A stretch of DNA of 64,000 bases from Pseudomonadota bacterium (GTDB taxonomy: Bacteria > Pseudomonadota > Gammaproteobacteria > Burkholderiales > Ferrovaceae), in contig JAGWIJ010000003.1 in NCBI GenBank assembly GCA_028873535.1, positions 1-64,000 on the forward strand, written 5' to 3'. A model generated the notes under the pieces. That model searched no databases. It was not told where the DNA came from and was given only the letters and a program-made list of their open reading frames with translations. The position numbers and the translations under genes are program-made. The first letter of the stretch is position 1, and every line of letters begins with the position of its first letter. Shown piece after piece: positions 3,786 to 36,712 of this stretch.

Positions 3786-4838
3786 TCAGTGCCGGTCGGC
3801 GCAGTGCACGCGCCAGGGCTGCCAGATCAGGTAATAGCTCAGTGCCGCGACGGAGAATCGGCCGTCGGGGCCGGTGACCTTGCCCTCGCTCAGATTGATA
3901 CGCGGAATCGCCAGCGGGTCGGTGTCCGCACACCAGACGCCCGGATCATTGGCGAATGCCAGGCGGTAGCCCGCCGCTTCCACGCGTGCGCGCGCTGCGG
4001 CATTCCAGTCCCCGTTCGGGTAGCTGAACAGGGCGAGATCCTCGCCACTCTCGACGGCGATCAGGCGACGCGACTCGGCAAGCTCGCGGTCCATCGCGGG
4101 GGCATCGAGATTGCTCAGGATCTCGTGGTGCATGGTGTGCGATCCGAAGCAGATGTCGCCCTCGCGCAGGGAACGCGCCTCGTCCCAGCGCATCGTCCGG
4201 TCGCACGGGGCAGCAGCGGCAGGGAAGCGCGCAACACAGGCTGCCAGCACCTGCCCGCGCGCTGCCGGCGCCAGCCGCTTGAGCAGGGCCAGCAGGTCCT
4301 CGGGCGACTGGCAGGCCGCCGCGCCCAGAGCGGTCTGCAGCAGTGCCTGCAGCGCCGTCAGGCCGGCACCGTTGGTGGCGACCGCGGAACGCCAGACGCC
4401 GACCGCAGTTTCCGGCCAGTAGGGCGAGGCGCTGTCCATCCGGCCTGGGCACAGGAAGATGCACGCCGGCGCACCTGCCTGGCGCAGCAGCGGCGCAGCG
4501 TTGCGCACATTGTCCTCCCAGCCGTCGTCGAAGGTGAGCGCCAGCGCCAGGCCGGTGGCGGGCGGCGACGCGCAGCGGCGCAGGTCGATCAGCGGGTGGC
4601 GTCGCGCGACGTAGGCGACCAACGCGGCGAATGTGCGTGTGCGCATCACCATTCCGGCCGGCGAATGGGTCGCATCGAACTCGGCGTCGTCCAGGATGCG
4701 GTGCAGGTTGACCACCAGCGCGCAACCCGTCCGGCGCAGCCTCCAGCGCGCCCAGCCGATGAGTCCCGAGCGCAGCAGCAGCTCGAACCAGCATGCCTTG
4801 AGCCAGCGCCGCGCGTGCGCCCGCAGGGTCGCCCCCAT
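3786..4838 (-). CDS. Polysaccharide deacetylase (NodB-like) family protein
   Basis: LALTFDDGWEDNVRNAAPLLRQAGAPACIFLCPG, FGSHTMHHEIL, SYPNGDWN; start overlaps upstream stop (TGATG). Confidence 0.85.
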   Translation of the reverse strand: MGATLRAHARRWLKACWFELLLRSGLIGWARWRLRRTGCALVVNLHRILDDAEFDATHSPAGMVMRTRTFAALVAYVARRHPLIDLRRCASPPATGLALALTFDDGWEDNVRNAAPLLRQAGAPACIFLCPGRMDSASPYWPETAVGVWRSAVATNGAGLTALQALLQTALGAAACQSPEDLLALLKRLAPAARGQVLAACVARFPAAAAPCDRTMRWDEARSLREGDICFGSHTMHHEILSNLDAPAMDRELAESRRLIAVESGEDLALFSYPNGDWNAAARARVEAAGYRLAFANDPGVWCADTDPLAIPRINLSEGKVTGPDGRFSVAALSYYLIWQPWRVHCADRH

Positions 4839-5623
4839 CAGATTGCCCGGAAGCCCTTGCGCCGCCAGGCCGCGATTTCGGCGATGGTGGGAAACGTGAA
4901 GTAGCTGCCCTGGCTGTGGTCGAGGGGTACCGCGCGCGCGGTACCGGCTTCGATCTCGCCGAGCGCGCGCGCCACGCAATGCGCGCCGTGGCGCTTGGAC
5001 CGCCGGATCAGGTGATCGAGCGTCTCGCCCGGATCGATCGCCAGCGACTCCTGCAACAGGGCAGGTCCTTCGTCGAGCTCGGCCACGACCTGATGAACGG
5101 TGACACCGACCTTGGTCTCGCCGTGGAACATCTGCCAGAAGGTCGGCATCATGCCCTTGAAGCGCGGCAGCGGGGCATGATGGATGTTCACGCAGCCCTG
5201 CGGCGCCAGGTTCAGCATGGGCTCCTTGAGCAGATACGGGCAGGCCACCGACACGATGAGATCGGCGCCGGCGCGCCGCGCCGCCTCCACGCACTCGGGC
5301 GAGTTGGGATTGCCCATGGGCACGCAGGGAATGTCGAATGCCGTGCACAGCTGCGCGAGCGAATGGAAGCGGCGCGTGTTGCGGTCCGCCGGGAGCCTGC
5401 CGCGCAGCTTCGCGACCAGCACGCGCGTCGCGAGACGCGCGAAACCCAGCGTGCCGTAGAGCGACGCAAGCTCGCGCGCCATCTGCAGGCGGCCCCGCTT
5501 GCCCATGGCGCGGCTGCAGAACACGCCGCGGATCTCGAAGCGGTCGGCGTAGTGGACGAGGAACTCCTCGAAAAACGGCAGGATGTACAGCGGGTCGTCC
5601 TGCGTCAGGAACAGTATCTTCAT
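4838..5623 (-). CDS. Formyltransferase family protein (methionyl-tRNA formyltransferase-like fold; candidate sugar N-formyltransferase)
   Basis: VNIHHAPLPRFKGMMPTFWQMFHGETKVGVTVHQV..DEGPALLQ, typical formyltransferase core. Confidence 0.8.
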   Translation of the reverse strand: MKILFLTQDDPLYILPFFEEFLVHYADRFEIRGVFCSRAMGKRGRLQMARELASLYGTLGFARLATRVLVAKLRGRLPADRNTRRFHSLAQLCTAFDIPCVPMGNPNSPECVEAARRAGADLIVSVACPYLLKEPMLNLAPQGCVNIHHAPLPRFKGMMPTFWQMFHGETKVGVTVHQVVAELDEGPALLQESLAIDPGETLDHLIRRSKRHGAHCVARALGEIEAGTARAVPLDHSQGSYFTFPTIAEIAAWRRKGFRAI

Positions 5624-5629
5624 GGCGGC

Positions 5630-6781
5630 CTATTTCCGTACGGTTTCCCACACCACGTACTTCCGTCCGCGCAACACCTCGACCACGCTGACCAGCGCCG
5701 CGAGATTGACGATGCAGAAGTAGAGGGGGACGGTGAGGACCCTGGAAATGCGCTGCAGCGGCAACGCCAGGCTGGCGAGCGCGCAGCCGTAGACCAGGGC
5801 CTGCGCCAGGAAGGCGCAAAGATAGAACGGTCGCCCCAGCAGGGGGAGGTTGGCCAGCAACAGGCCGATCAGGAAGAACGGCACCAGCCAGCGCAGAACC
5901 TTGTGCGACAGCAGCTGGAACGCGATCCAGCCATGCCGCAGCGGATTCAGGAGCTCGGCCACCGACAGCATGCCGCGGATTCCGCGCGTGACGACCCGCA
6001 CGCGCATCGAGAATTCCTCGCCGCTGGTCTGGGTGGTCTCCTCGTAGGCGAGAGCGCGGTCCTCGAAGGCGACGCGGAAGCCCTTCTTGATCACCTGCAG
6101 CGGCTGGACGAGGTCGCTGATGATGTCCGGATCGAGCGCGGTGTAGGCGCTGGCGCGCACCGCGTAGATGCAGCCGCAGCAGCCGCTGATGGTGCGGATC
6201 CGCGACTGGAACTTCTTGATCAGGTTCTCGTAGTTCCAGAACGCGATGGTGCCGAGGCCGGTCGGCGAAGCGCCCGTCTCGTCGAAGTACTGGTAGCGGC
6301 CGCTGGCCGCGCCGACAGCCGGGTCACGGAACTGCGACGCGAGGTAGCGCAGGGCCATCGGATGGTAGACGGTGGTGGCATCCGAAAAGATCAGCACTTC
6401 GCCGCGTGCCTCGAGCACGCCGTTGTTCTGGGCGCTGGTCTTGCCGGCGCGCTTTGCCATGCGCAGAAGGCGCACACGCGGATCGCTGACAGCCTTGACG
6501 ATCCCGTCGGTACCATCGCTGGAGCAATCGGACAGCACCAGGATTTCCATGCGGTCCGCCGGGTAGTCCAGGCGCAGGGTCTGTTCGAGCTTGCGTCCGA
6601 TGTTGGCCGCCTCGTTGTAGGCGGCGATCAGGATCGTGATGCGCGGAAAGTGATCCGGCGCGGGAGCGGGGCGACGCACCCAGCGGCTCAGGAACGCCAG
6701 CAGCAGGGGATAGCCGGCATAGGTGTAGCAGAGCAGGCCGGCAAATAACCAGAACAGGGTGGCGGCGACATCATCGATCAT
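5630..6781 (-). CDS. Membrane glycosyltransferase family 2
   Basis: ITILIAAYNEAANIGRKLEQTL...VLSDCSSDGTD; N- and C-terminal hydrophobic segments. Confidence 0.88.
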   Translation of the reverse strand: MIDDVAATLFWLFAGLLCYTYAGYPLLLAFLSRWVRRPAPAPDHFPRITILIAAYNEAANIGRKLEQTLRLDYPADRMEILVLSDCSSDGTDGIVKAVSDPRVRLLRMAKRAGKTSAQNNGVLEARGEVLIFSDATTVYHPMALRYLASQFRDPAVGAASGRYQYFDETGASPTGLGTIAFWNYENLIKKFQSRIRTISGCCGCIYAVRASAYTALDPDIISDLVQPLQVIKKGFRVAFEDRALAYEETTQTSGEEFSMRVRVVTRGIRGMLSVAELLNPLRHGWIAFQLLSHKVLRWLVPFFLIGLLLANLPLLGRPFYLCAFLAQALVYGCALASLALPLQRISRVLTVPLYFCIVNLAALVSVVEVLRGRKYVVWETVRK

Positions 6782-9054
6782 CGGGCTTTCCTTCGCGCCC
6801 TGAGGGCGGCGTCGTAGACATCCATCAATCCCTCCATCATGCCCTGGACCGTGAAGGTCGCGAGCGCGATGCGGCGGCCCTCGCGACCCATGCGTGCGCG
6901 CAGTGCCGGGTCTTCCAGCAGTGCGGCCAGCCGCTCCGACAGCGGCCCGGCGGCCTCGCTGGCAACCAGGAAACCGTTCACGCCCTCGCGCACCGCCTCG
7001 CCGTTGCCGCCCACATCGGTCGCAACGCAGGGCAGGCTGCACAGCATGGCCTCGACCAGCGCGTTCGAGAACCCTTCGCTGCGCGAGGGCAGCACGAATA
7101 TGTCGCTCGCCGCGAGGACCGCTGGAATGTCCTCGCGCGCGCCGACGAACAGCAGCGTGCGCTCCAGGCCATGGGCGGCGACGTAGGTCTGCAGCGCCGT
7201 CATGTGATCCGGTTCGTGCGCGTCACCGACCACGACGAATCGCGCGGTCGGGAAGCGTTCGCGGAGCCGGGCCGCCGCTTCGGCCAGCACATCGACGCCC
7301 TTGACGTGGCGGATATGGCCGACCGTCGTGATCACGAGGTCGTCGGCGCCCAGCCCCATGCCTGCGCGCATCTCGTCGCGCGCGACGGTCGCGGAAGTGC
7401 GATCCTCGATGCCGTTGTAGACCGTGACGACCCGCTCGGCGGGCAGACCGTCGACCGCGCGACAGTTGTCGCGCACGCGGTCCGATACCGCCACCACCCG
7501 ATCGAACAGCGGAGTCAGCAGGCGGTACGCGATTGCGTGCTTGCGGCTGCGCAGGATGCCCATGTCGCGCCGGCTGGAAATCAGTGCGACCTGCCCGGTC
7601 GACTTGGCGACCAGCCCGCCCCAGAGATCGGAGGTTTCGAAGAAGGTGTGGACCAGCTGGATCCCGTGCCGCCGGATGTGCGCGCGGATCCTGCGCGCGA
7701 CCTGCAGCGCATTCCAGTTGTAGGTGCGGCCGAGCGGCATGACCGTCAGGGGACAAGGGAACGCGCGCACCAGCGGCTGTTCCAGGTCGGCACGGAAGGT
7801 GATGGCGGTCGGGGTGAAGCGTTCGCGCGGGAGGTGCTGGATCATGCGCATCAAGGCGCGTTCGGCGCCGCCCATCTCGATCAGTTCGTCGACGATGAAC
7901 AGCACCGGCACGCTGCGTGCTGGCGCGACCCGGGAGCGGGCCTGCCGGTAAAGCTCCAGATACTTGCCGGCCATGATGCTCGCCGTGAATTCCTGCCTCA
8001 CGCGTGCCTGGCCCTGCAGGCCGAGACGGGCCGCCAGGGCCGGGTCTTCGAGCAGCGGTGCCAGTGCCTCGGTCAGTGCTTCGGGTGCACGCGGCGGCAC
8101 CAGACGCCCGGTGCCGTGGTCGATCACCATGCGTGGAATCTGGCCCACCGCCGTCGCGATCACCGGCTTGCCGGCCGCCATGGCTTCGAGGATGGTCATG
8201 GGAAATCCTTCGTCATGCGAGGGCAGCACCAGCACATCGATGGCCGCATAGAGGTCGGCCATGTCCCGACGAACGCCGAGAAACCTCACTTTTTGCGTCA
8301 GGCCGAGCGTCGCGGCAAGTGCTTCGAGCGTGGACCGGTGCGGTCCGTCGCCGATCAGCAGCAGTTGCATCCCCGGCACGCGCGCATGGATGCCAGGAAG
8401 AGCCGCCAACAAGTCCTCCAGCCCCTTCTCGGCGGCCAGGCGTCCGACGTAGCCCAGCACCGGTCTGTCCTGCAGCCCGAGTTCGCGGCGCAACTGCCCA
8501 TTGCCGGCCGCGAATGCCGCAGGATCGATACCGTTCCCGATCAAGGCCAGCCTGTCGGTCGCCACCCCATGGCGGCCAAGTTCGCGCAGCACCGCATCCG
8601 AGACGGCTGCCACGCGGTCGAAACCGCGCAGCGCAAACTTGTCGAGTGCCGCATAGGCTCTCATCTTGAGCGTCTTGACGGGCCAGTTGTGCACCGTGGC
8701 GACGCGCGCATGCCGCCTGCCATCGATGGCCAGGCGCACGTAGAGATCCGCCTTGTAGCCGTGGCTGTGCACGACGTCGAAGCTGCCGCTGCTGGCGACG
8801 TGGCGCAAGGCCGCCACCGAAGCACGGTCAAGCCTGCCGCCGCAGTCTATCTCGTGCGATTCGAATCCCAGCCCCCGCGCCTGACGTGCGAGGTCAGCGC
8901 TGCCGCCTGCCGGTGTCAGCAGCGATGCCAGCGCCACCTCACAGTCGTGCGCCGCCAGGCCCTTCATCAGTGCGAGGATCATGTTCTCGGCGCCGAAGTA
9001 TCCGGAGCTGCTGATCACCTGGAGGATGCGCATGGGGGACGGCGGCGTGCTCAT
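6778..9054 (-). CDS. Bi-modular protein: two tandem GT4-type glycosyltransferases in one ORF
   Basis: MRILQVISSSGYFGAENM...EGFPMTILEAMAAGKPVIAT followed by VPVLFIVDELIEMGGAERALMRM...EGFSNALVEAMLCSLPCVATDVGG with no stop; ATGA overlap with upstream gene. Confidence 0.88.
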   Translation of the reverse strand: MSTPPSPMRILQVISSSGYFGAENMILALMKGLAAHDCEVALASLLTPAGGSADLARQARGLGFESHEIDCGGRLDRASVAALRHVASSGSFDVVHSHGYKADLYVRLAIDGRRHARVATVHNWPVKTLKMRAYAALDKFALRGFDRVAAVSDAVLRELGRHGVATDRLALIGNGIDPAAFAAGNGQLRRELGLQDRPVLGYVGRLAAEKGLEDLLAALPGIHARVPGMQLLLIGDGPHRSTLEALAATLGLTQKVRFLGVRRDMADLYAAIDVLVLPSHDEGFPMTILEAMAAGKPVIATAVGQIPRMVIDHGTGRLVPPRAPEALTEALAPLLEDPALAARLGLQGQARVRQEFTASIMAGKYLELYRQARSRVAPARSVPVLFIVDELIEMGGAERALMRMIQHLPRERFTPTAITFRADLEQPLVRAFPCPLTVMPLGRTYNWNALQVARRIRAHIRRHGIQLVHTFFETSDLWGGLVAKSTGQVALISSRRDMGILRSRKHAIAYRLLTPLFDRVVAVSDRVRDNCRAVDGLPAERVVTVYNGIEDRTSATVARDEMRAGMGLGADDLVITTVGHIRHVKGVDVLAEAAARLRERFPTARFVVVGDAHEPDHMTALQTYVAAHGLERTLLFVGAREDIPAVLAASDIFVLPSRSEGFSNALVEAMLCSLPCVATDVGGNGEAVREGVNGFLVASEAAGPLSERLAALLEDPALRARMGREGRRIALATFTVQGMMEGLMDVYDAALRARRKAR

Positions 9055-9797
9055 CGGGCATTGGCCTGCATGCCGCTGCGGCCGGTGAGCAGCGACCACG
9101 CACGGTGATAGAGGCGGTCGCCAAGCAGCGACTTGAGGGTCTCGCGCGTCGTGTGGAGGGTCCGGATGGCGAGGTAGGGCGCGAGGTCGCCGCGCACGTA
9201 GCGCTGCAGCCATGCCTGCGACATCTTGCGGTTCATCACCAGGCGGCCCTCGAATGCGATGCCGGCGCGGTCACCGCCTTCCTTCCATGGCACCGAACCA
9301 TAAACGCGCTGGTATCCGGTCTCGGCACACATGTCGAGGACGCGCCGGTTGCAGCGCCCTCCGGGGAGCGAAATCCCGGTGACTGCCTGGCCGAGCCGAT
9401 CCTCCAGCAGCCGCCTGGCATCGCGCAGCTCGGCGCGCAGGTCGGCGGTGTCGAGCTGGGTCAGGAAGCGGTGCGTCAATCCGTGGCACCCGACCTGATG
9501 GCCCTGACGCGCAAGCTCGCCCAGCTCGGCCCAGCTCATGAAGCCTTCGCGCTGACCGATCCAGCCCGCGGTCACGAAGAACCTGGCGGTGCGCGCATGC
9601 GCGTGCAGCAGCGGTGCGGCCACCCTGGCGTTGCTGGCGTGGCCGTCGTCGAAGGTGATATCGACCGCCGGGCCGCCGGCTGTCGCGAGCGCGTTGAACA
9701 CGGCAAGCTGATGCGAGAACTGCTCCGCCGACAGCGAATAGAAGGAATCCGAAGGTCCTTCGACGATCTCGTGGTAGCCCAGTATCCTGCTGCGCAT
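9051..9797 (-). CDS. Polysaccharide deacetylase family protein
   Basis: VDITFDDGHASNARVAAPLLHAHARTARFFVTAGWI; VGCHGLTHRFL. Confidence 0.88.
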   Translation of the reverse strand: MRSRILGYHEIVEGPSDSFYSLSAEQFSHQLAVFNALATAGGPAVDITFDDGHASNARVAAPLLHAHARTARFFVTAGWIGQREGFMSWAELGELARQGHQVGCHGLTHRFLTQLDTADLRAELRDARRLLEDRLGQAVTGISLPGGRCNRRVLDMCAETGYQRVYGSVPWKEGGDRAGIAFEGRLVMNRKMSQAWLQRYVRGDLAPYLAIRTLHTTRETLKSLLGDRLYHRAWSLLTGRSGMQANAR

Positions 9798-9809
9798 GCC
9801 GCCGTCCTC

Positions 9810-11126: not shown

Positions 11127-11149
11127 GCTGGCAGACTCTCCCGTGCGGC

Positions 11150-13239: not shown

Positions 13240-13253
13240 GGCGGCTGGTCCGG

Positions 13254-16533: not shown

Positions 16534-16594
16534 GGATTCGGTGCCGCCGGAGGGGTTGCAGGGTGGTTCATTCGATCGTCCTGGGCGCCGGGGC

Positions 16595-17872
<1,278 letters not shown>

Positions 17873-23856: not shown

Positions 23857-23953
23857 TGACTTCCTGAAAACGTTGTTCGATGGCTCTTGGTCCAGGCACG
23901 CAGAGCGGCCAACCGGAGCGCCTGCTCCAGCCGGCGTCACACGCGGCCGGGGG

Positions 23954-24436: not shown

Positions 24437-24930
24437 GACAGATTCTCATTCAATTGGACCGTATTCATTCCTGTTTCGTCGCCAGGCGCATCGACGTGAT
24501 CGATGATTGGTCTGAAGTCCATCCCAATATATACAAGGATGGTGCACCTGCAACATCGTGGCGACGTGGATATCGAAAAGTTCACAATGCTGACGTCCGT
24601 GAGGCTGGCATGGCGGCATGCTGCGATGTTAACGTCATGGCATGGCATCGCAACCGAGATCGGCTTCTGCTTTGAGTCCTCCTGGCCGTGACGCTTGCAG
24701 GTGTTGCTCAGGGAAACACTGTATTTGCAGTCCCGGGGGGCATGTATTTTCTGTTTGAAACGCACCCGATGCGAATGCAAATGCTGCTTGCTATAGTCTG
24801 GCATGGCAGCAGGTCCGGAAAAGCCTGTTACTACCGCCGAATCGCTTGCCGAGGTCAACGTCGGCCTTGAAACGAATTGTGCCAAGTACAGCAATGGTCG
24901 CCGCAGCTTACGCGGTGCAGGGAGCGGAAA

Positions 24931-27900
24931 ATGACAACGATATCCGATAAGTTTTGGCGCCAGTTGCTGCTGGGCCTGGTGGTGATGGCATGCTTCGGCC
25001 CCCTTCGGTCGTTCGCGTCATGCGCCGCTCCGGCCAACGCCATCGAGGCCGAGAACTGCCTGCCCGGCAACCCGTACACGCAGTGGGACATTCCCACGGC
25101 GGACATGGGTGACCCGACCATCCAGGGTTTCGCGACGGACATCAGCATCAACCAGGGCGGGACCATCAACTTCAAGGTCAACACGCCGGCATCCGCGTGG
25201 ACGCTGGACATCTACCGCCTGGGCTACTACGCGGGCCTGGGCGCGCGCAAGGTTGCATCGCTGGCGCCATCTGTCCGGCTTCCGCAGAGCCAGCCGGCGT
25301 GTCTGGTCGACCAGCCCACCTTGCTGACGGACTGCGGCAACTGGGCCGTGTCGGCTTCCTGGGTCGTGCCAGCCAATGCGACCTCGGGCGTCTACATCGG
25401 CAAGCTGACCCGGACCGACACCGGCGGCACCAGCCACATGATCTTCATCGTGCGCAATGACGCCAGCCATTCCGATGTGCTGTTCCAGACCTCCGACCCC
25501 AGCTGGCAGGCGTACAACCACTTCTCGCCCGATTTCTACGATTGCATGAACACGGCCAACTGCCGTGGCTACAAGCTCAGCTACAACCGTCCGTTCACGA
25601 CCCGCTCGGTGGAGCCTGAGACCTGGGTGTTCAACGCGGAATTCCCGATGATCAAGTGGCTCGAGGCGAACGGCTACGACGTGACCTACTTTGCGGGCGT
25701 CGACACCGACCGCAGCGGTGCCCTGCTCAAGAACCATAAGCTGGTGCTGTCCAACGGCCACGACGAGTACTGGTCCGGCGGCCAGCGCGCCAGTGTCGAG
25801 GCGGCGATCGCAGCGGGCGTGAACTTCGCTGCCTTCAGCGCCAATACCAGCTACTGGAAGACGCGCTGGGAAAGCGCGATCGACGGATCGGGATCGCCCT
25901 ACCGGACCCTGGTCTGCTACAAGGAGACCTGGGCCAACGCGCGCATTGATCCACTGGCTCCCGGCACCTGGACCGGCACCTGGCGCGATCCGCGCTTCAG
26001 CCCGTCTGGCGATGGCGGTCGTCCCGAAAACGCATTCCTCGGTTCACAAACCATCGTTGCCGGACCGAATCTCGGCGACCTGATCGTTCCGCAGGCAGAC
26101 GGCAAGCTGCGCTTCTGGCGCAATACCTCGGTGGCGCGCCTTGCCACAGGCCAGGCGGCAACCCTGTCGTCGGGCATCCTGTCTTCCGAGCTGGACAGCG
26201 ACGTCGACAACGGCCAGCGCCCCGCGGGCCTGATGCACCTGACGACCACCAACGTGACCTCGGATCAGGTCCTGCTGGACTTCGGCAACACGGTGGGAAC
26301 GCGCAGCATCGTCCACAACGCCACGCTCTATCGCAATGCCAGCGGCGCGCGCGTGTTCGCGTCGGGGTCCTACAACTGGGCATGGGGACTGGACGCCGAT
26401 CATGATCGCAGCAACCTGGGGGCGATCGTCGATCCCAACATGCAGCAGGCGACGGTCAACCTGTTCGCCGACATGGGTGTGCAGCCGCAGACCCTGCAGC
26501 CTGGCCTGGTCGCCGCCAGCGCGTCGACCGATGTCACGCCGCCCACTTCGCTGATCGTGAGCCCGGCGTCGGGCGCGATCCTCACCGGCGACGTGCCGGT
26601 CACGGTCACCGGCACGGCCTCCGACCTCGGCGGCGGGGTGGTCGCCGGGGTCGAGGTCTCGACCGACGGCGGATCGAGCTGGCATCCGGCCAGCGGTCGC
26701 GAGAGCTGGACCTACGCCTGGACGCCCACCATGGCCGGCAGCATCACGGTGCTGTCGCGCGCGGTCGACGACAGCGGCAACCTCGAAACCCCGGGGGCCG
26801 GTGCCAAGCTGACCGTCAGCGGCACGTCCTTCCTGAGCATCTTCCCGGTCAATGCCACGCCCGCCAATCCGGACGTCGGCGCTGACGCGTCGGTCGAACT
26901 CGGGGTCCGCTTCGTCGCCGACTACAACGGCTTCATCAAGGGCATCCGGTTCTACAAGGCGGCTGCCAACACCGGAACGCACATGGGCAATCTGTGGACC
27001 AGCAGCGGGACCTTGCTGGCCACGGCGACATTCAGCGCTGAGACAGCCTCCGGCTGGCAGCAGGTGCTGTTCGCGACACCCGTTGCGATCACTGCGGGCA
27101 CCACCTATGTGGCGTCCTACCATGCGGGCGCCGGACACTACAGCGGTGACGCCAACCGCTTCATCGGCAACGGTTTCGACAACGCGCCCCTGCATGCACT
27201 CGGTACCGACGCCACCGGCTCCAACGGTGTCTACACCTACGGCGCGAGCAGCCTCTTCCCGAGCCAGAGCTATTCCGGCACCAACTACTGGGTGGACGTC
27301 GTCTACAGTTCGACCGACATGCCGACCGCGCCGCTGGGCTCCATCGCCGTGACGCCGGCGACCGCCAGCGTCACGGCCGGCGGCGCAACGCAGCAGTTCA
27401 GTGCCACGGGCACGTTCACCGATGGCAGCACCCTGGACATTACGCAGAAGGTGAGCTGGGCGTCCTCCAATGTCGCGGCTGCCACCATCAGCAGCGCTGG
27501 TCTGGTCACGCCGGTCGCCACCGGGACGAGCAACATCACGGCCACCATGTCCGGCAAGACCGGCAGCGCCAGCCTCACGGTGCAGCCGGCAGCGCTGTCG
27601 ATCACGACCACGGCGCTGCCGGGCGGATCGGTGGCGGCGCCTTACACATCCGCGCTCGCCGCATCGGGTGGCACTGCGCCCTATAGCTGGTCGGTGTTTG
27701 CCGGTACGCTTCCGCCGGGACTGAGCCTGAATGCCGGCACGGGCGTGATTGCCGGAACGCCCACGGTGGTCGGCAGCACCAGCTTCACCGTGATGGCCAC
27801 CGACAGCAGTGCGGCCAAGGCTTCGATCACGCGCTCGCTCAGCATCACCATTGCCGCGCCGGCCGGGTCGGTGTGGCCTGCCACCGCGGTTCCGGCCACG

Positions 27901-29112
27901 CCGGATGCGGGTGCCGACGGGTCTGCAGAACTCGGCATGAAGTTCCGCTCCGACGTTGCCGGCTATATCAACGGGGTGCGCTTCTACAAGGCTGCCACCA
28001 ATACCGGCACCCACGTCGGCAACCTCTGGTCGCTGACGGGGACCCTGCTGGCCAGCGCGACCTTCACGGCCGAGACGGCCTCCGGCTGGCAACAGGTCAA
28101 TTTCGCCAAACCGGTCGCGATTGCCGCCAATACCGTGTACCTCGTCTCGTATCACGCCGTGGCAGGACACTACAGCTACGGCTCGGGCTACTTCACCGGC
28201 AAGGGTGTCGACAATCCGCCGCTGCATGCGCTGGCCGATGGTGTCTCGGGCGGCAACGGCGTCTACAGCTACGGCTCGGGCAGCGTCTTTCCCAGCCAGA
28301 CCTACGCAGCGAACAATTACTGGGTCGATGTGGCCTTTGGCACCAACCCGCCCGCCCTGACGTTCACGCCACCCACCCTGGCGACGGGCCTGACCGGCAT
28401 CGCCTACTCGGCGACCCTGTCGGCTGCGGGCGGCACGGCGCCCTACACCTGGAGCCTTGCCTCCGGCGCGCTGCCCGCCGGACTGAGCCTGAACGCCAGC
28501 ACCGGCGTGATCTCGGGTACGCCGACCGCCGCGGGCACTTTCGGCTTCAGCGTCAAGGTGGTCGATGCGTCGGCGAGCCCGCAAACGGTCACGGCAGCGT
28601 TGACGCTCACGGTCGCTGCCAGTGGCGGCGTCTCGCTGTGGCCCGGCACGACGGTCCCAGCTGTGGTCGACGTGGGCGCGGACAGTCCGGTTGAACTCGG
28701 GGTCAGGTTCAAGTCCGACTCCACCGGCCATATCGCCAGCATCCGCTTCTACAAGTCGGCCGCGAATACCGGCACGCACGTAGCCAACCTGTGGTCGAGC
28801 ACCGGGGCCCTGCTGGCCACGGCCACCTTCACCGGCGAGACCGCGTCAGGCTGGCAGCAGGTCAACTTCGCCACGCCGGTGGCAATCAGCGCAGGCGCCG
28901 TGTATGTCGCGTCCTACCACACCAACGTCGGCCACTATGCCGACAACAACGGCTACTTCAGTGGTGCGGGCTACGACAGCGCGCCCCTGCATGCACTGGC
29001 GGATGGCGTGTCGGGTGCCAACGGCGTGTACGCTTATGGCAGCAACAGCAGCTACCCGAGCTCCGGTTACCAGGGTTCGAACTACTGGATCGACGTGGTT
29101 TTCACGCCCTGA
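24931..29112 (+). CDS. Large secreted multidomain protein: N,N-dimethylformamidase large-subunit-like domain, Ig-like segment, BIG2-like and putative-Ig domains, three DUF4082-like repeats
   Basis: Hydrophobic leader; ETWVFNAEFPMIKWLEANGYDVTYFAGVDTDRSGALLKNHKLVLSNGHDEYWS; three repeats with GIRFYKAAANTGTH(M/V)GNLW...ASGWQQVxFATPVAI..YVASYH..GHY. Confidence 0.82.
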   Translation: MTTISDKFWRQLLLGLVVMACFGPLRSFASCAAPANAIEAENCLPGNPYTQWDIPTADMGDPTIQGFATDISINQGGTINFKVNTPASAWTLDIYRLGYYAGLGARKVASLAPSVRLPQSQPACLVDQPTLLTDCGNWAVSASWVVPANATSGVYIGKLTRTDTGGTSHMIFIVRNDASHSDVLFQTSDPSWQAYNHFSPDFYDCMNTANCRGYKLSYNRPFTTRSVEPETWVFNAEFPMIKWLEANGYDVTYFAGVDTDRSGALLKNHKLVLSNGHDEYWSGGQRASVEAAIAAGVNFAAFSANTSYWKTRWESAIDGSGSPYRTLVCYKETWANARIDPLAPGTWTGTWRDPRFSPSGDGGRPENAFLGSQTIVAGPNLGDLIVPQADGKLRFWRNTSVARLATGQAATLSSGILSSELDSDVDNGQRPAGLMHLTTTNVTSDQVLLDFGNTVGTRSIVHNATLYRNASGARVFASGSYNWAWGLDADHDRSNLGAIVDPNMQQATVNLFADMGVQPQTLQPGLVAASASTDVTPPTSLIVSPASGAILTGDVPVTVTGTASDLGGGVVAGVEVSTDGGSSWHPASGRESWTYAWTPTMAGSITVLSRAVDDSGNLETPGAGAKLTVSGTSFLSIFPVNATPANPDVGADASVELGVRFVADYNGFIKGIRFYKAAANTGTHMGNLWTSSGTLLATATFSAETASGWQQVLFATPVAITAGTTYVASYHAGAGHYSGDANRFIGNGFDNAPLHALGTDATGSNGVYTYGASSLFPSQSYSGTNYWVDVVYSSTDMPTAPLGSIAVTPATASVTAGGATQQFSATGTFTDGSTLDITQKVSWASSNVAAATISSAGLVTPVATGTSNITATMSGKTGSASLTVQPAALSITTTALPGGSVAAPYTSALAASGGTAPYSWSVFAGTLPPGLSLNAGTGVIAGTPTVVGSTSFTVMATDSSAAKASITRSLSITIAAPAGSVWPATAVPATPDAGADGSAELGMKFRSDVAGYINGVRFYKAATNTGTHVGNLWSLTGTLLASATFTAETASGWQQVNFAKPVAIAANTVYLVSYHAVAGHYSYGSGYFTGKGVDNPPLHALADGVSGGNGVYSYGSGSVFPSQTYAANNYWVDVAFGTNPPALTFTPPTLATGLTGIAYSATLSAAGGTAPYTWSLASGALPAGLSLNASTGVISGTPTAAGTFGFSVKVVDASASPQTVTAALTLTVAASGGVSLWPGTTVPAVVDVGADSPVELGVRFKSDSTGHIASIRFYKSAANTGTHVANLWSSTGALLATATFTGETASGWQQVNFATPVAISAGAVYVASYHTNVGHYADNNGYFSGAGYDSAPLHALADGVSGANGVYAYGSNSSYPSSGYQGSNYWIDVVFTP
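26836..27312 (+). repeat. DUF4082-like repeat copy 1 (coding)
   Basis: SIFPVNATPANPDVGADASVELGVRF...NYWVDVVYSS. Confidence 0.8.
27868..28341 (+). repeat. DUF4082-like repeat copy 2 (coding)
   Basis: SVWPATAVPATPDAGADGSAELGMKF...NYWVDVAFG. Confidence 0.8.
28632..29109 (+). repeat. DUF4082-like repeat copy 3 (coding, C-terminal)
   Basis: SLWPGTTVPAVVDVGADSPVELGVRF...NYWIDVVFTP. Confidence 0.8.
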
Positions 29113-29261
29113 AAGGGGCAGGCGGCCTGTCGGCAGTCAACCCGGATCCGGGCCAGGGGCGGCGCCGGGAGGGCTTCGCCCCTTTGCTTTGGCATGGTGC
29201 CGCACTGGAATCCTTGCGTGAACCGGCGCCGGGGCCTGGCCCGGTGGTCCGCGGTTGAAGC

Positions 29262-30368: not shown

Positions 30369-30376
30369 GGTGCAGT

Positions 30377-31924
30377 CTAGAACAGCTGGCTCAGCGAGAC
30401 GCGCACGGAGTTCTCCAGGTATGCGCTGTTCGCGTCGGTGGAGGTCCTCTGCAGGCGGCGGAACTCCAGCGCAGCCCTGGCATCCGGTGACAGGCGGAGA
30501 AACGCGCCCAAGGTGAAGGTCAACTGCCGGTCGACCTGCGCGATATCGCTGAAGTCGAAGCGGCTGAGGTTGAGGCTGGACGCGAGGGTCAGGCGAGGTG
30601 CGGTGCGAATGCCGAGGCTCACGCCGGCACCGTCGGTACGGATGCGCCGGCTTACCGCGAAATCGGCCGCGCCGGCAGCAAGGGTGTTGTCGAGCGCCTG
30701 GCGGATCTCGTCGTAGATCGCGAGCAGTGCCGTGGACTTGCCGCTGTTGTAGCCGAGCTTGGCCTCGAAGCGCTTGTCCAGGAAGGTGTTGGTGCTCAGG
30801 AAATTCGTCGGGTAGGCAAGGCTGGCGGGCAGTCCGCGGTCGTTGATCAGCTGGTGCGCAAGCTGGCCGCGCAAGGCCGGATCAGGCGTGGTCGGTGCCA
30901 GCAGCGTTTCCAGGAAACCCAGGGTGTCGGTCGTGGCGGGCAGGCCGAACGTCGACTGGGCCGTGGTGACGTCCTGATTGTAGGTCACGCGCGCGTAGGA
31001 GTTGCTCGCGTGGTGGATCAGGTCGAGGTCGTAGGTCGGACCGAATGGACGGTGGCCGACCGACAGCTCGGCGCTGCTCAGCGGCGTAGGCGACCATCGG
31101 ATCCCGGTGCTCCAGCGCCCCCCTTCGACCGTTCCTGTCTGACCTGCGAAGTCGAAACGTTCGGCACCGGCCTCGTTGAGCCACCGCAGAACGGGGTTGA
31201 CGCGCACATCCAGATGCGCAAGCGCATTCTGCGAGCGACTGGACTGGCTGCTGGCGAAATCAACCTGGTCGCGGTAAACGCTGAGGCCGGCGCTGGCCCG
31301 GCTTGCCGCGCTGCCGCTGTCGAGTTTGGCTTCGATGCGGTTGTCGTTGCTGTTGTATGCGCCACCGCCGCTTCCGGAATCCAGCACGCGATGCGTCAGG
31401 CGCAGTTCGCCGTTGCCTTCCCCGCCGATCCGGCCGGCAAGCACCGGGCTGAGCTGCCAGGTGCGTACGGTCGAGAGATTGGTCGTTGCATTGCTGCTGT
31501 CGACCGCCTGCGGTCCGAGCAGGGACGTGTTATCCCGGCTCACATCCGCGGCGGCGTCGATGGAGAGCAGCCGCGAGGCGGTCTCGGCGTGCGCATCCGA
31601 ATGCAGCAGGCTGTGGCTCTGATCGAGGTCGGTTCGCGAACGGTAAAGCAGATTCTGCAGCACGTAAAAGACGTGCGCGGCGGCCAGCGGTCCTGTTGCG
31701 ACCACATTCAGACTGGGAGCCACCTGGGTGAACGCGTCGCCACTGCCGTGCGGGCTCGGGACCAGCGCAACGTTGTCGCTGTAGCCAGTGGCCACCTCGA
31801 TCCCCGGTGTCCAGCGGATACCCTCCGCCCGCGCGGTCGGCGACATCAAGCACTGCAAAGCGGCGCTCGCAGCCAGCGCGCCCAGGCCCGCGCGCGCCCC
31901 GCTGCCCAGCCGTCTAGCCACCAT
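30377..31924 (-). CDS. TIGR03016-like PEP-CTERM system-associated outer membrane beta-barrel protein
   Basis: Signal-peptide-like N-terminus, EGIRWTPGIEVATGYSDNVAL; alternating beta-strand pattern; C-terminal phenylalanine; position between ATPase and kinase. Confidence 0.85.
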   Translation of the reverse strand: MVARRLGSGARAGLGALAASAALQCLMSPTARAEGIRWTPGIEVATGYSDNVALVPSPHGSGDAFTQVAPSLNVVATGPLAAAHVFYVLQNLLYRSRTDLDQSHSLLHSDAHAETASRLLSIDAAADVSRDNTSLLGPQAVDSSNATTNLSTVRTWQLSPVLAGRIGGEGNGELRLTHRVLDSGSGGGAYNSNDNRIEAKLDSGSAASRASAGLSVYRDQVDFASSQSSRSQNALAHLDVRVNPVLRWLNEAGAERFDFAGQTGTVEGGRWSTGIRWSPTPLSSAELSVGHRPFGPTYDLDLIHHASNSYARVTYNQDVTTAQSTFGLPATTDTLGFLETLLAPTTPDPALRGQLAHQLINDRGLPASLAYPTNFLSTNTFLDKRFEAKLGYNSGKSTALLAIYDEIRQALDNTLAAGAADFAVSRRIRTDGAGVSLGIRTAPRLTLASSLNLSRFDFSDIAQVDRQLTFTLGAFLRLSPDARAALEFRRLQRTSTDANSAYLENSVRVSLSQLF

Positions 31925-32810
31925 AGCTCCCGTAACCGTAGGGCTGGCTTGCCAGGTCGAGCGAGTGGCTCTTGTTCAACAGCAGATTGACGACGTCGCA
32001 CGACTCGATCAGTTCGAGCGCCTCGCCGACCGCACTCTGCGTGGTGTGGCCGGCTTCGACGACCACCACCACCTGCCCCATCTGGGTTGCCAGCACGCGC
32101 GACTCGTTGGTGATCAGCAGCGGGGGAGAATCGAAAATGATGATGCGGTCCGGGTAGCGCTGGGTCATGTCCTGCAACAAGCGGTGCATGGCGCCGCTGG
32201 CCAGCAGTTCGGTGGCGTTGGCACGGACGTTCCCCGCCGGAAGCACCGACAGCTTCTCGACATCGGTCTTGATCAGGACGTCGGCCATTTCCAGCGACTC
32301 GTCGAGGATCAGGTCCAGCAGCCCGCGCCCACCTTCGAGCCCGAGCAGATCGAGAATCGAGGGCTTTGCCACGTCGGCGTCGACCAGCAATACCGTATTG
32401 TCGAGTTCGCGTACGATGCTCATTGCGAGGTTCACGGCACAGAAGCTCTTGCCTTCGCCAGCCACGGCACTGGTCACCATCACCAGATTGCCGTTGCGCA
32501 GCGGCGGCACGTTCTTCTTGCCGAACGCGTTTTCCAGCAGGGGACGCTTGATGCGACGGAACTCCTCGGTCAGCTGACGGTTGGCGCCATCGGGCGTGAC
32601 CATGCCCAGGGCCTGCAGCCGGCCAAGATTGACGGTCCCGGCGCGCGCGGAATGACGCCGTGAGGGGCGCGCGGGCGCTGGCGCCGAGGACTCCGCCGGC
32701 GCTTCCGCCGTTGACGCGCGGACGTCGGCATCGCCAGATGCCGGTGGGTCCTCCGCCGGCATTTCCCGTTGAAGCCGGCGCGCGGCTCGTTCGATCAGAT
32801 CCAATTCCAT
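31914..32810 (-). CDS. XrtA-associated tyrosine autokinase (CpsD/CapB/BY-kinase family)
   Basis: NLVMVTSAVAGEGKSFCAVNLAMSIVRELDNTVLLVDADVAKPSILDLLGLE; IIIFDSPPLL; Tyr/Gly-rich C-terminus SQPYGYGSYGG. Confidence 0.9.
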   Translation of the reverse strand: MELDLIERAARRLQREMPAEDPPASGDADVRASTAEAPAESSAPAPARPSRRHSARAGTVNLGRLQALGMVTPDGANRQLTEEFRRIKRPLLENAFGKKNVPPLRNGNLVMVTSAVAGEGKSFCAVNLAMSIVRELDNTVLLVDADVAKPSILDLLGLEGGRGLLDLILDESLEMADVLIKTDVEKLSVLPAGNVRANATELLASGAMHRLLQDMTQRYPDRIIIFDSPPLLITNESRVLATQMGQVVVVVEAGHTTQSAVGEALELIESCDVVNLLLNKSHSLDLASQPYGYGSYGG

Positions 32811-32868
32811 CGACTCCCCTGCATGGCGCTCCCGACCCTCGCCGGGGTTTGCCAGTGCTGCATGATGA

Positions 32869-34503
32869 TCAGGCCGCGGCTATGCCGACCATCGTGACGA
32901 TTCCGATCAGCGCGGCATAGCAGCCGAACAAGCCCAGCACGACCATGCCGAACGCCATCCTGGTGTTCCACCCTGCCTGTTGCTTCCGGGCAGCGTGCAC
33001 CAGCGAGACCGTTCCCAGCACGGGACGGCGGGTCAGCTGGCGCAGCGCGCGCTCCGACTGGAAGCTCGGCCACACGCGGCTGAGGCCGATCGCCAATGCG
33101 ACGGCGCCGCCCAGCCCCAGCAGGAACACGAGCGAGATCAGCAACAGACGATTCGGGCCGGACGGGTGCAGCGGGACCCGGGGCGGCTCGACGATGCGGA
33201 AATCGATGCCACGCGAGGAACTGGCCATGTTCTCCGAAATCTGTTCCGACTCGCGGCGCTGCAGCAGCTTTTCGTAGTTGGCGCGATTGACCTCGTAGTC
33301 GCGGTTGAGCTGGGTCAGGTCCGCTTCGACCTGCGGCACCTGATCGGCCTGAGCGCGCAGTTCCGCGTAGCGTCGGCCGTATTCACCGACACGCGCGTTC
33401 AGCGTGGCGATCTGGGCTTCCTGGTCAGCGAGCGAAACCTTGAGTTGCTCCAGAACGGGATTGCGCTCCCGGTGCGCGCTGCTGCGCGTCCCGGCCGGCG
33501 CAGTTGCTGCGCGCCGGTCATCCTGCGCGTGTCGTGCGGCAGCACGCGAACGTTCGCGCTCGCGCTGCGCTTCGAGATTGGCCAGTGCGCGTTGCGCCGC
33601 CATGACGTCGGGATGTGCATCGGTGAACCTGAGGCGCAGCTGGTCGAGGCTGTCGCGCGCCTGCTCGATGCGGCTGTCCAGTGCCGGATCCACGCTCTCG
33701 CCAGACACGGACGCGGTCTCGCCCATCCGCAGGTCCCCGCTGACAGCCCCTTCACTTTGCGGCGGATCCGCGGGTTCGTCAGCCATCCGGCGCAGGACCG
33801 CTTCACGCGCGCTCTGCGCCTCGCGCAACTCGAGGCGGGCCTGGCGCAGCTGCGTATTGGCCTGGTCCAGGCGGCTGAAGTAGTCCTGCTTGTCACTGGG
33901 CATGACGCCCAGGTTCCGGCGTTTGAAGTTCTTGAGCGCGTTCTCGGCGGCGGCAAGCTTGGACTCGTAGCCGCGGATCTCGTCATCGATGAAACGCCGT
34001 GTCAGGTCCATGTCCTTGCGCCCGGCCCCCAGGCTGCTGGCCACGAACATGTCCAGCAGCGACTGGACAACCAGCTTGGCACGCGCCGGATCGCGATCGC
34101 GGTAGGCCACGGAATAGAGATTCTCGGTGCCCGCGCTCTTGAATTCGATGTGCGAGGCCAGCCTGTCGATGGCTTCGTCGCGTTCGACAGCACTCTTCAA
34201 CGTCGCGTCCATGCGCGTGATGTGGAGCACGCGCTCGAGGTTCGGACGGTTGATCAGGGTGCGGCTCATGACGGCGATCTGCTGGTCGAGCAGGGAATCC
34301 GCAGCAAGGCCGTTCATCAGCGGGTTCAGCATGGTGCGCGTGTCCACGAAGACGCGCGCCGTGGCGTTGTAGCTGTCGGGAACGAAGTACACGGAAACCC
34401 AGCCGATCAGGCAGATACCCCAGGCCAGCGCGGCAGCGTGCCATCGATATCGCCAGGCATCCCGGGCCGCGGTCAGCAGCTCCTCGACGATGTTGGCCCT
34501 CAT
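32869..34503 (-). CDS. XrtA-system polysaccharide chain-length determinant (TIGR03007-like, Wzz/PCP)
   Basis: N-terminal TM plus YNATARVFVDTRTMLNPLMNGLA; long coiled coil; C-terminal RGIDFRIVEPPRVPLHPSGPNRLLLISLVFLLG. Confidence 0.9.
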   Translation of the reverse strand: MRANIVEELLTAARDAWRYRWHAAALAWGICLIGWVSVYFVPDSYNATARVFVDTRTMLNPLMNGLAADSLLDQQIAVMSRTLINRPNLERVLHITRMDATLKSAVERDEAIDRLASHIEFKSAGTENLYSVAYRDRDPARAKLVVQSLLDMFVASSLGAGRKDMDLTRRFIDDEIRGYESKLAAAENALKNFKRRNLGVMPSDKQDYFSRLDQANTQLRQARLELREAQSAREAVLRRMADEPADPPQSEGAVSGDLRMGETASVSGESVDPALDSRIEQARDSLDQLRLRFTDAHPDVMAAQRALANLEAQRERERSRAAARHAQDDRRAATAPAGTRSSAHRERNPVLEQLKVSLADQEAQIATLNARVGEYGRRYAELRAQADQVPQVEADLTQLNRDYEVNRANYEKLLQRRESEQISENMASSSRGIDFRIVEPPRVPLHPSGPNRLLLISLVFLLGLGGAVALAIGLSRVWPSFQSERALRQLTRRPVLGTVSLVHAARKQQAGWNTRMAFGMVVLGLFGCYAALIGIVTMVGIAAA

Positions 34504-34550
34504 GTCGGATTGCCCTGCAGGGCGCGTGCGGCGGTCATTCTGCAGTACCC

Positions 34551-35168
34551 TCAAAACCAGCTTTCGGGGATGAACAGCACGTCTCCCGGTCGTATGTCCA
34601 CGTTGGCGCTGATGTCACCCCGGCGCACCAGGTCCTCGAGCCGCACCGACAACTGCTCGTTGCCGCTGGCGCGCACGATGGTCGCGCGATTGCCGTCCGC
34701 GAAATCGGTCAGGCCGCCGACGGCGATCAGCACATCGAGCAGGGTCATGCTCTGGCGGTAGGCCAGCGCCTGCGGCTTCGAGACCTGCCCCAGGACGCGC
34801 ACCTGCTGGGCGTATGGGCCGGCGAAATTCTGCACAATCACCGTGACCACCGGTTCCTTCAGGTAGCGGGCCAGTGACTTTTCGATGTCACGTGCCAGTT
34901 GCGTGGGTGTCTTGCCGCTGGCCTGCAGATCCTCGACCAGTGGCGCAGAGACCTTGCCGTCCGGCCTGACCGGCACCGGGCCTGAGAATTCCGGGTTGTG
35001 CCAGACCACGACATTGAGCAGGTCGCCGGGGCCGAGCAGGTAGTCGGCGTCCGCGCTGCCGCTGGCATGCGTCGGTGCCGGCGGAAAGGTCTGATGGGCG
35101 CAGGCCGTGACGAGGCAGAGTGCAAACAGCGCGGCGACGACGTTGAGCAGATTTTTGAGCGCGACCAT
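34551..35168 (-). CDS. XrtA-system exopolysaccharide export protein (OPX/Wza-like lipoprotein)
   Basis: Lipobox LVTACAHQ; DYLLGPGDLLNVVVWHNPEFSGPVPVRPDGKVSAPLVEDLQASGKTPTQLARDIEKSLARYLKEPVVTVIV. Confidence 0.9.
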   Translation of the reverse strand: MVALKNLLNVVAALFALCLVTACAHQTFPPAPTHASGSADADYLLGPGDLLNVVVWHNPEFSGPVPVRPDGKVSAPLVEDLQASGKTPTQLARDIEKSLARYLKEPVVTVIVQNFAGPYAQQVRVLGQVSKPQALAYRQSMTLLDVLIAVGGLTDFADGNRATIVRASGNEQLSVRLEDLVRRGDISANVDIRPGDVLFIPESWF

Positions 35169-35314
35169 GATTACCTGGGAATGTTGTTGGCTGTTGTGGA
35201 AACCGGGACCTGCGCGCCCCTTGCCTGTCTGGATCGCACTTGCCGACCCGCACGCGTCACCAGACGCATCTGGATACAATTTAGCAGATTGCCTGCAAGG
35301 CCCCATGGTTCAAG

Positions 35315-36712
35315 TCAGCGTGCTCCCTTGCGCCCGAGGACCACGGCCACGGTCTCGAACAGGATGAGCAGGTCGAGTGCGAAGGAATGGTTTTTGACGT
35401 AGTACAGGTCGTACTGCAGCTTCTCGACCGTATCCTCGATCGATGCCGCATAGGCATAGCGCACCTGCGCCCAACCCGTGATGCCCGGCTTGACGCTGTG
35501 GCGCGCCGCGAAATAGGGAATCTCGCGCGTCAGCGGTTCCACGAAGACCGGACGCTCCGGACGCGGACCGACGAAGCTCATGTCGTTGTTGAGGACGTTG
35601 AAGATCTGCGGCAGTTCGTCGATCCGCAACTTGCGGATCACGTTGCCGACGCGCGTCACGCGCGGGTCGCCGGCGCTTGCCCAGCGCGCTTTGCCGTCGC
35701 GCTCGGCGTCGGCGCACATGCTGCGGAATTTGTAGATCCGGATGATCCGTCCGCCCTGGCCGACGCGTTCCTGCGAGTAGAACACCGGCCCCGGGCTCTC
35801 AAGCTTGATCAGGATCGCGGTCACGATCATCACCGGCCAGGTCACGGCCAGCAGCGCCAGACTGGCGACCACGTCGAAAGTCCGCTTGACCGTGTCGCGC
35901 AGCCGCGTGTGATTGAAACCTTCGCCCAGGATCAGCCAGCTCGGGTCCAGCGCATCGACGCGCACGTGGCGCTCCACGCGCTCGAGGAAAGTGCTGAACT
36001 CGGTCACCTTGACCCCGCGCAGGCGGCAGTCGAGCAGTTCCTTGAGCGGAAGGACACCGCCACGCCGCTGCTGCACCGCCAGCACGATCTCGTCGACTCC
36101 CAGGCGCGACACAGCCTCAGTCAGCGAGGTCCCGGGCGGCAGGATCTTCGTCTCGGAAACGCATTGCACGGCTCCCGGCACGGCCAGATAGGCGACGATT
36201 TCCTCGTTGGCGTGCCGGCTTCCGCGCGCCGACTCCAGATTGAGGGCACGCGCGCCGGTGCCAATCACCAGGATACGACGCGGCCGCAGGCCGAACTCGG
36301 CACGCTGATACAGCAGCAGGCGGCAGGTACAGACGCCAGCAAACACCAGATTGAATCCCAGCTTGAGTTCGGCGTGGCCCATGAACAGATTGGGCAAGGC
36401 CATCGACGTCAGGCTCAGCACGCCCATGCAGAACAGGAACACCGCAAGGATGCGGATCAGCGGATGCGTCGGACGGTAGCCCGACCGGCGCATATAAAGC
36501 TTGTACGTGACCAGACACAGCAAGGCCAGACCCACACAGGCCAGCGCTGCCGGCAGGGGCTCCCCCGGGGACCAGTGCAGGTCCGTTGCGAACCGGAACA
36601 GGTTCAAGGTGACGCCGACATAGACAGCCGCGACGACCAGCAAGGCGTCGACTGCTGCCAGCCAGACCACCGGCATCTTCGCGGGTTCCTCAAAGGCTCT
36701 CGTAGTCGCCAT
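35315..36712 (-). CDS. XrtA/PEP-CTERM system glycosyltransferase (TIGR03013-like, polyprenyl-phosphate sugar-1-P transferase)
   Basis: KRTFDVVASLALLAVTWPVMIVTAILIKLESPGPVFYSQERVGQGGRIIRIYKFRSM; RIDELPQIFNVLNNDMSFVGPRPERP. Confidence 0.92.
   Translation of the reverse strand: MATTRAFEEPAKMPVVWLAAVDALLVVAAVYVGVTLNLFRFATDLHWSPGEPLPAALACVGLALLCLVTYKLYMRRSGYRPTHPLIRILAVFLFCMGVLSLTSMALPNLFMGHAELKLGFNLVFAGVCTCRLLLYQRAEFGLRPRRILVIGTGARALNLESARGSRHANEEIVAYLAVPGAVQCVSETKILPPGTSLTEAVSRLGVDEIVLAVQQRRGGVLPLKELLDCRLRGVKVTEFSTFLERVERHVRVDALDPSWLILGEGFNHTRLRDTVKRTFDVVASLALLAVTWPVMIVTAILIKLESPGPVFYSQERVGQGGRIIRIYKFRSMCADAERDGKARWASAGDPRVTRVGNVIRKLRIDELPQIFNVLNNDMSFVGPRPERPVFVEPLTREIPYFAARHSVKPGITGWAQVRYAYAASIEDTVEKLQYDLYYVKNHSFALDLLILFETVAVVLGRKGAR

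What the first reader, a model, noticed from the sequence alone, without database searches (positions are those of the whole stretch)
3786..36712. Hybrid EPS locus: XrtA-type PCP/OPX/BY-kinase machinery together with a Wzm/Wzt ABC exporter and an O-antigen-ligase-like protein, without a Wzx flippase
Directly visible: an XrtA-type gene set (35315-36712 sugar transferase, 34551 OPX, 32869 PCP, 31914 BY-kinase, 30377 OMP, 29262 ATPase, 17946 deacetylase). Also present are a full ABC-2 polysaccharide exporter (14372-16533) and a Wzy/WaaL-family protein (9810). No Wzx-like flippase was recognised in the window. Established: Wzx/Wzy and Wzm/Wzt are normally alternative routes. Inference: either two surface glycans are encoded in one locus, or the ABC transporter replaces the flippase in an XrtA-type pathway.
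Basis: partly seen in the sequence, partly recalled or inferred. Interest (0 to 1): 0.72.

Follow-up and report, generated by a model that had tools for sequence, protein, structure and literature searches.

The report
XrtA-type EPS locus with ABC exporter
This bacterium carries the standard 'XrtA-type' machinery for secreting a sticky sugar coat, but an ATP-driven ABC exporter sits where related bacteria have a flippase gene, and comparison with relatives shows that this exporter swap has happened more than once.

Summary
The window carries an XrtA-type export core (EpsB_2, short OPX, PCP, BY-kinase, beta-barrel, ATPase). Next to it a 19-gene operon-like run holds the XrtA-type deacetylase, Wzm, Wzt (with Wzt_C) and a Wzy_C/ligase-like protein. 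No Wzx was found in the window or in the rest of the 93%-complete MAG. One correction: XrtA itself is absent; the exosortase is XrtB, on another contig.
New evidence favours exporter replacement. Among 81 order-mate loci anchored on the XrtA-type PCP, 50 have a Wzx within 50 kb, 5 have a Wzm within 60 kb, none has both (p about 0.007). In three genera the same XrtA locus carries Wzx in one species and Wzm/Wzt in another at the same position. The TIGR03097 Wzy/ligase-like gene, PCP and BY-kinase stay intact and under purifying selection after the swap. The window's Wzm belongs to a different clade, so its association looks separate.
Not proven: that core and ABC operon make one glycan here. An independent O-antigen is the main rival, and a wzx could lie beyond the truncated XrtB contig. 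Verdict: new variant of a known kind.

The parts
35315..36712 (-). EpsB_2, initiating polyprenyl sugar-phosphate transferase (TIGR03013)
   Evidence: 506 bits, cut-off 393; PF02397
34551..35306 (-). short OPX export protein (TIGR03027), longest frame 251 aa
   Evidence: 231 bits, cut-off 180; PF02563 plus SLBB
32869..34554 (-). PCP chain-length determinant (TIGR03007)
   Evidence: 518 bits, cut-off 279
31914..32810 (-). BY-kinase (TIGR03018)
   Evidence: 277 bits, cut-off 231
30377..31924 (-). outer-membrane beta-barrel (TIGR03016), candidate partner of the short OPX
   Evidence: 203 bits, cut-off 91; PF10082
29262..30368 (-). XrtA-associated ATPase (TIGR03015)
   Evidence: 396 bits, cut-off 325
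24877..29112 (+). large surface-type protein separating the two operons; not assigned to the pathway
   Evidence: DMFA2_C, Ig-like and DUF4082 domains
23954..24436 (-). hexapeptide acyltransferase, first gene of the glycan/exporter operon
   Evidence: PF00132
22825..23853 (-). Gfo/Idh/MocA sugar dehydrogenase
   Evidence: PF01408
21725..22828 (-). DegT/PLP sugar aminotransferase
   Evidence: PF01041
21025..21681 (-). NeuD/PglD-type sugar acetyltransferase
   Evidence: TIGR03570, 165.9 bits, cut-off 160.8
20007..20981 (-). NAD-dependent sugar epimerase/dehydratase
   Evidence: GalE/LegB-like, below cut-offs
18850..20010 (-). DegT/PLP sugar aminotransferase
   Evidence: PF01041
17946..18911 (-). 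XrtA-type polysaccharide deacetylase (TIGR03006), overlapping its upstream neighbour
   Evidence: 445 bits, cut-off 276; spacing
16595..17872 (-). UDP-sugar 6-dehydrogenase
   Evidence: PF03721/PF00984/PF03720
15685..16533 (-). Wzm, ABC-2 polysaccharide permease
   Evidence: PF01061; nearest solved homologue 6m96/7k2t permease; only Wzm match in the MAG
14372..15688 (-). Wzt, ATPase with Wzt_C carbohydrate-binding-type domain
   Evidence: PF00005, PF14524; nearest solved 6amx/8dku; overlaps Wzm by 4 bases
13254..14375 (-). GT2 glycosyltransferase
   Evidence: PF00535
12322..13257 (-). GT2 glycosyltransferase
   Evidence: PF00535
11150..12325 (-). GT4 glycosyltransferase
   Evidence: PF00534
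9810..11126 (-). Wzy_C/O-antigen-ligase-like protein, distant relative of TIGR03097
   Evidence: PF04932 92.5 bits; TIGR03097 85.9, below cut-off
9051..9797 (-). second polysaccharide deacetylase
   Evidence: PF01522
6778..9054 (-). protein with two GT4 domains
   Evidence: PF00534, two stretches
5630..6781 (-). membrane GT2 glycosyltransferase
   Evidence: PF00535; weak PgaC-like
4838..5623 (-). formyltransferase
   Evidence: PF00551
3786..4814 (-). third polysaccharide deacetylase, last gene of the operon (start approximate)
   Evidence: PF01522

Best explanation
The locus most likely encodes one exported polysaccharide. EpsB_2 starts the glycan on undecaprenyl phosphate. The glycosyltransferases and sugar-nucleotide enzymes of the 24436-3786 operon build it. 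Wzm/Wzt (in place of Wzx) moves it across the inner membrane using ATP. The PCP with its BY-kinase, the short OPX and the TIGR03016 beta-barrel carry it to the surface, with the TIGR03006 deacetylase modifying it. Shown: gene content, operon-like spacing, absence of a detectable Wzx in the MAG, mutual exclusion of PCP-linked Wzx and Wzm, and Wzx-for-Wzm/Wzt exchange at the same position in three genera. Inferred: that core and ABC operon serve one glycan in this organism, and whether Wzm/Wzt exports finished chains or short units that the Wzy_C protein then joins.
For: Core and exporter families pass curated cut-offs. The XrtA-type deacetylase lies inside the Wzm/Wzt operon, whose gaps are at most 100 bases with repeated 4-base overlaps. 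The MAG has one Wzm, no PF01943 and no other Wzx-like match besides MurJ. Around 81 TIGR03007 PCP loci, Wzx lies within 50 kb in 50, Wzm within 60 kb in 5, both in 0 (p 0.0066). Same-genus exchanges: G184 against G337/G359, G290 against G397, G251 against G045. G251 (2 contigs, 99% complete) and G152 have the XrtA-type PCP and no PF01943. The Wzx cassettes of G337, G397 and G045 contain no second Wzy-like multi-TM protein by hydropathy, so they appear to depend on the core's TIGR03097 protein.
Against: The two operons of the window are separated by 4.8 kb holding an opposite-strand gene. The window's Wzm is only 37-40% identical to the Wzm clade found at XrtA loci; it groups, with modest support (83/69), with Wzm from loci not linked to XrtA. 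The MAG is 93% complete; its XrtB/WcaJ contig is only 5.8 kb and genus-mate G002 has a Wzx about 5.6 kb downstream of XrtB, so a wzx may sit in an assembly gap. PCP with BY-kinase normally belongs to Wzx/Wzy pathways (general knowledge). No expression or chemical data exist.
Confidence: 0.6

Rival explanations
1. Two glycans are encoded side by side: Wzm/Wzt and the ligase-like protein make an LPS O-antigen, while the XrtA-type core exports a separate EPS using a flippase elsewhere in the genome.
For: Wzm/Wzt plus a Wzy_C protein is a normal O-antigen set, e.g. M. xanthus O-antigen uses Wzm/Wzt (PMC7484181). Diamino-sugar and amino-uronate type genes occur in O-antigen loci (general knowledge). 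The opposite-strand gene splits the two operons. A wzx may be missing from the assembly near C60. The window's Wzm groups with non-XrtA-linked Wzm.
Against: The XrtA-type deacetylase is inside the Wzm/Wzt operon. No Wzx in the MAG. PCP-linked Wzx and Wzm are mutually exclusive in the order. Another Wzy_C gene that could be the LPS ligase lies on C36.
Confidence: 0.28
2. The exchanging cassette in the relatives is an O-antigen cassette that merely neighbours the XrtA locus, so the swap says nothing about EPS export.
For: In H. parainfluenzae, Wzy-type and ABC-type O-antigen loci occupy the same genomic position (PMC3989065). The cassette runs convergent to the XrtA core.
Against: The sampled Wzx cassettes hold no Wzy-like protein of their own by hydropathy. 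In several genomes the only PF01943 of the genome is the PCP-linked one, e.g. G051, G079, G228. No Wzx is found inside the core itself.
Confidence: 0.3
3. The XrtA-type core in the window is a non-functional remnant, since XrtA, FemAB, stp1 and TIGR03108 are gone.
For: None of these is found in the window and the MAG's clear exosortase is XrtB.
Against: All six core genes and the deacetylase are full-length open frames scoring above curated cut-offs.
Confidence: 0.08

Closest known systems
XrtA (EpsH/PEP-CTERM)-associated EPS locus of Proteobacteria (Haft 2006, PMC1569441)
   Same: EpsB_2, OPX, PCP, BY-kinase, TIGR03016, TIGR03015 and TIGR03006 all present, core in the usual order
   Different: No XrtA, FemAB, stp1 or TIGR03108; ABC exporter and no Wzx; only a distant TIGR03097-like protein
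ABC transporter (Wzm/Wzt)-dependent polysaccharide pathway
   Same: Wzm plus Wzt with C-terminal Wzt_C domain, no Wzx, ligase-like protein
   Different: Combined with a PCP/BY-kinase/short-OPX core normally seen with Wzx/Wzy
Composite short-OPX/beta-barrel export system (PMC9601211, PMC9603273)
   Same: OPX of at most 280 aa with a beta-barrel gene within five genes
   Different: Coupled to an ABC exporter, a rare assignment there: 14 ABC against 185 Wzx/Wzy of 453 couples
H. parainfluenzae O-antigen locus (PMC3989065)
   Same: Wzy-type and ABC-type sets occupy one genomic position in different strains
   Different: LPS O-antigen within one species, not an XrtA-type EPS locus across genera

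Membership tests
XrtA/PEP-CTERM EPS system | EpsB_2, OPX, PCP, BY-kinase, TIGR03016, TIGR03015, TIGR03006 | tested here: met
   All seven above curated cut-offs
XrtA/PEP-CTERM EPS system | Exosortase A (TIGR03109) | tested here: not met
   Genome search gives one clear exosortase, XrtB, and a weak XrtM-like match; MAG 93% complete
XrtA/PEP-CTERM EPS system | FemAB (TIGR03019), stp1 (TIGR03087), TIGR03108 in the locus | tested here: not met
   No tblastn match in the window to the G184 proteins
ABC transporter (Wzm/Wzt)-dependent pathway | Wzm permease and Wzt ATPase adjacent | tested here: met
ABC transporter (Wzm/Wzt)-dependent pathway | No Wzx flippase serving the pathway | tested here: inconclusive
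   None found in the MAG, but the MAG is incomplete and the XrtB contig is truncated
ABC transporter (Wzm/Wzt)-dependent pathway | Chain completed in the cytoplasm before export | not testable with these tools
   Needs biochemistry
Wzx/Wzy-dependent pathway | Wzx flippase (PF01943/PF13440) | tested here: not met
Wzx/Wzy-dependent pathway | Wzy-like protein and PCP | tested here: met
   PF04932 and TIGR03007; polymerase versus ligase role not resolved
Composite short-OPX/beta-barrel translocon | OPX of at most 280 aa with a beta-barrel gene within five genes | tested here: met
   251 aa OPX; TIGR03016 protein three genes away; C-terminal helix not tested

The most novel reading that the evidence does not exclude
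In these loci Wzm/Wzt works as an ATP-driven flippase for a pathway that still uses a Wzy-type (TIGR03097-like) protein and a BY-kinase-controlled PCP in the periplasm: a true hybrid of the two textbook routes, reached by exchanging the exporter gene alone.
Probability: 0.2. Interest if true: 0.85.

Novelty: new variant of a known kind. Interest (0 to 1): 0.6.

Why it matters
Wzx/Wzy and Wzm/Wzt are usually treated as alternative whole pathways. Here the inner-membrane exporter appears to be exchangeable while the PCP, kinase, outer-membrane exit and Wzy/ligase-like protein stay in place and under selection. That makes two open questions testable: whether TIGR03097 is a polymerase or a ligase, and whether a PCP with BY-kinase can serve an ABC exporter. 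No paper in the searched library holds exosortase, Wzm and Wzt together.

Tried and rejected
Anchoring the comparison on TIGR03013 alone was misleading: in most Burkholderiales-type relatives the EpsB_2 gene is far from the PCP core, so the test was redone on TIGR03007. The 80 named TIGR03006 loci with 10 kb flanks showed no Wzm and only two Wzx, because the exporter usually lies further away. The idea that XrtA was merely on another contig was rejected: that contig carries XrtB. Common descent of the window's Wzm with the XrtA-linked Wzm clade is not supported by the tree. Two family searches failed on wrong frames. Structure prediction was not used; it would not separate polymerase from ligase.
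Full report
Setting. The window is the first 64000 bases of a 67493-base contig (C103) in a 3.43 Mb, 193-contig MAG, 92.9% complete. The best matches to its deacetylase are from betaproteobacteria.

What is there. The - strand carries two gene blocks. The first (36712-29262) is an export core: EpsB_2, short OPX, PCP, BY-kinase, TIGR03016 outer-membrane protein and TIGR03015 ATPase, all above curated cut-offs. The second (24436-3786) is a run of 19 genes with gaps of at most 100 bases and several 4-base overlaps. It contains sugar-nucleotide enzymes, the XrtA-type deacetylase TIGR03006, a UDP-sugar dehydrogenase, Wzm, Wzt with a Wzt_C domain, glycosyltransferases, a Wzy_C protein, two more deacetylases and a formyltransferase. 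Between the blocks lies a + strand gene for a 1411-residue protein with DMFA2_C, Ig-like and DUF4082 domains.

Wzx and exosortase. PF01943 finds nothing in the MAG. PF13440 and PF03023 find only MurJ on C183. A Wzx HMM built from relatives finds nothing in the window. The clear exosortase lies on C60, a 5.8 kb contig, and is XrtB, next to a WcaJ-type transferase. FemAB, stp1, TIGR03108 and XrtA have no match in the window. So this is an XrtA-type core without XrtA. Caution: in genus-mate G002 the WcaJ-XrtB locus has a Wzx about 5.6 kb downstream of XrtB, so a wzx may be missing only because C60 is cut short.

Comparison across the order. TIGR03013 above cut-off occurs in 106 of 399 genomes. 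In 80 genomes with it (chosen to avoid loci at contig ends) I located Wzm, PF01943 and the XrtA-type PCP TIGR03007. Positions were transcribed by hand from those outputs into the script. Of 81 PCP loci, 50 have a Wzx within 50 kb; 5 have a Wzm within 60 kb (the window at 17 kb; G251, G184, G290 and G059 at 42-51 kb); none has both. The chance of no overlap is 0.0066 if loci were independent, which related genomes are not fully. Six of the 80 genomes lack PF01943 altogether: G000, G152, G158, G168, G251 and G302.

Same-genus exchanges. In genus g100, G184 shares its XrtA locus with G337 and G359 (most core proteins 72-94% identical), and G184 carries Wzm-Wzt where G337 and G359 carry Wzx, beside the same AroB-type gene. 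The core annotation of G184 includes XrtA, FemAB, stp1 and TIGR03108, and the G337 counterpart of its ligase-like gene scores 611 bits to TIGR03097. G290 against G397 and G251 against G045 show the same exchange at matching positions. In the Wzx cassettes examined (G337, G397, G045) no second Wzy-like multi-TM protein is predicted (a simple hydropathy count). Across these pairs TIGR03097, PCP and BY-kinase have dN/dS of about 0.07-0.18, much as in the Wzx-Wzx pair G337-G359 (0.06-0.17); dS is high in some comparisons, so these ratios are approximate.

Wzm tree. Nine Wzm (G184, G290, G059, G251, G116, G271, G309, G152, G075) form one clade with 100/100 support; four are physically linked to the PCP and five lie on other contigs, two of these beside the AroB-type gene. 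None of these nine genomes has a PCP-linked Wzx. The window's Wzm lies outside this clade, joined with modest support (83/69) to Wzm of loci not linked to XrtA. The window's pairing of core and Wzm therefore looks like a separate event.

Mechanism. I favour one pathway with the ABC exporter in place of Wzx (0.6). The window supports this by the deacetylase inside the Wzm/Wzt operon and by having a single Wzm and no detectable Wzx; the relatives support it by exclusion and exchange. What is not shown: that both blocks act on one glycan, whether finished chains or short units are exported, and whether the Wzy_C protein is polymerase or ligase. The main rival is an independent O-antigen.

Known context. 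The short OPX with a nearby beta-barrel fits the composite system of PMC9601211, where 14 of 453 couples were assigned to ABC pathways and 185 to Wzx/Wzy. In H. parainfluenzae the two O-antigen export types share a genomic position, which the authors call unusual (PMC3989065). M. xanthus makes its O-antigen through Wzm/Wzt (PMC7484181). Wzk of H. pylori shows that an ABC transporter can flip Und-PP-linked sugars (PMC4990322). No paper in the searched library holds exosortase, Wzm and Wzt together.

Noticed in passing
window 41798-43715 (+): Small cysteine-containing secreted peptide followed by an MbnB/TglH/ChrH-type enzyme (PF05114) and a frame that resembles DUF2063 by eye: looks like a bufferin-type RiPP cluster.
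   Followed up: partly
window 24877-29112 (+): 1411-residue protein with a DMFA2_C domain, Ig-like domains and DUF4082 repeats, lying between the two operons on the opposite strand.
   Followed up: partly
L004 (G000:C60) 4576-5070 (+): Small protein with a PEP-CTERM-like C-terminus (TIGR02595, 22.1 bits) next to the XrtB/WcaJ genes.
   Followed up: partly
L006 (G000:C44) 4602-5168 (+): Weak exosortase-family match, nearest XrtM (72.5 bits, below cut-off 125).
   Followed up: partly
window 48572-51772 (+): 1066-residue frame with about 12 predicted TM segments; size and topology suggest an RND-type efflux pump, not tested by profile.
   Followed up: no
L226 1-3186 (+) and equivalents in G337, G290, G397, G251, G045, G059: Conserved protein of about 1040-1140 residues with an N-terminal GT2 domain and a C-terminal sulfatase domain, kept in both Wzx-type and Wzm-type cassettes.
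   Followed up: partly
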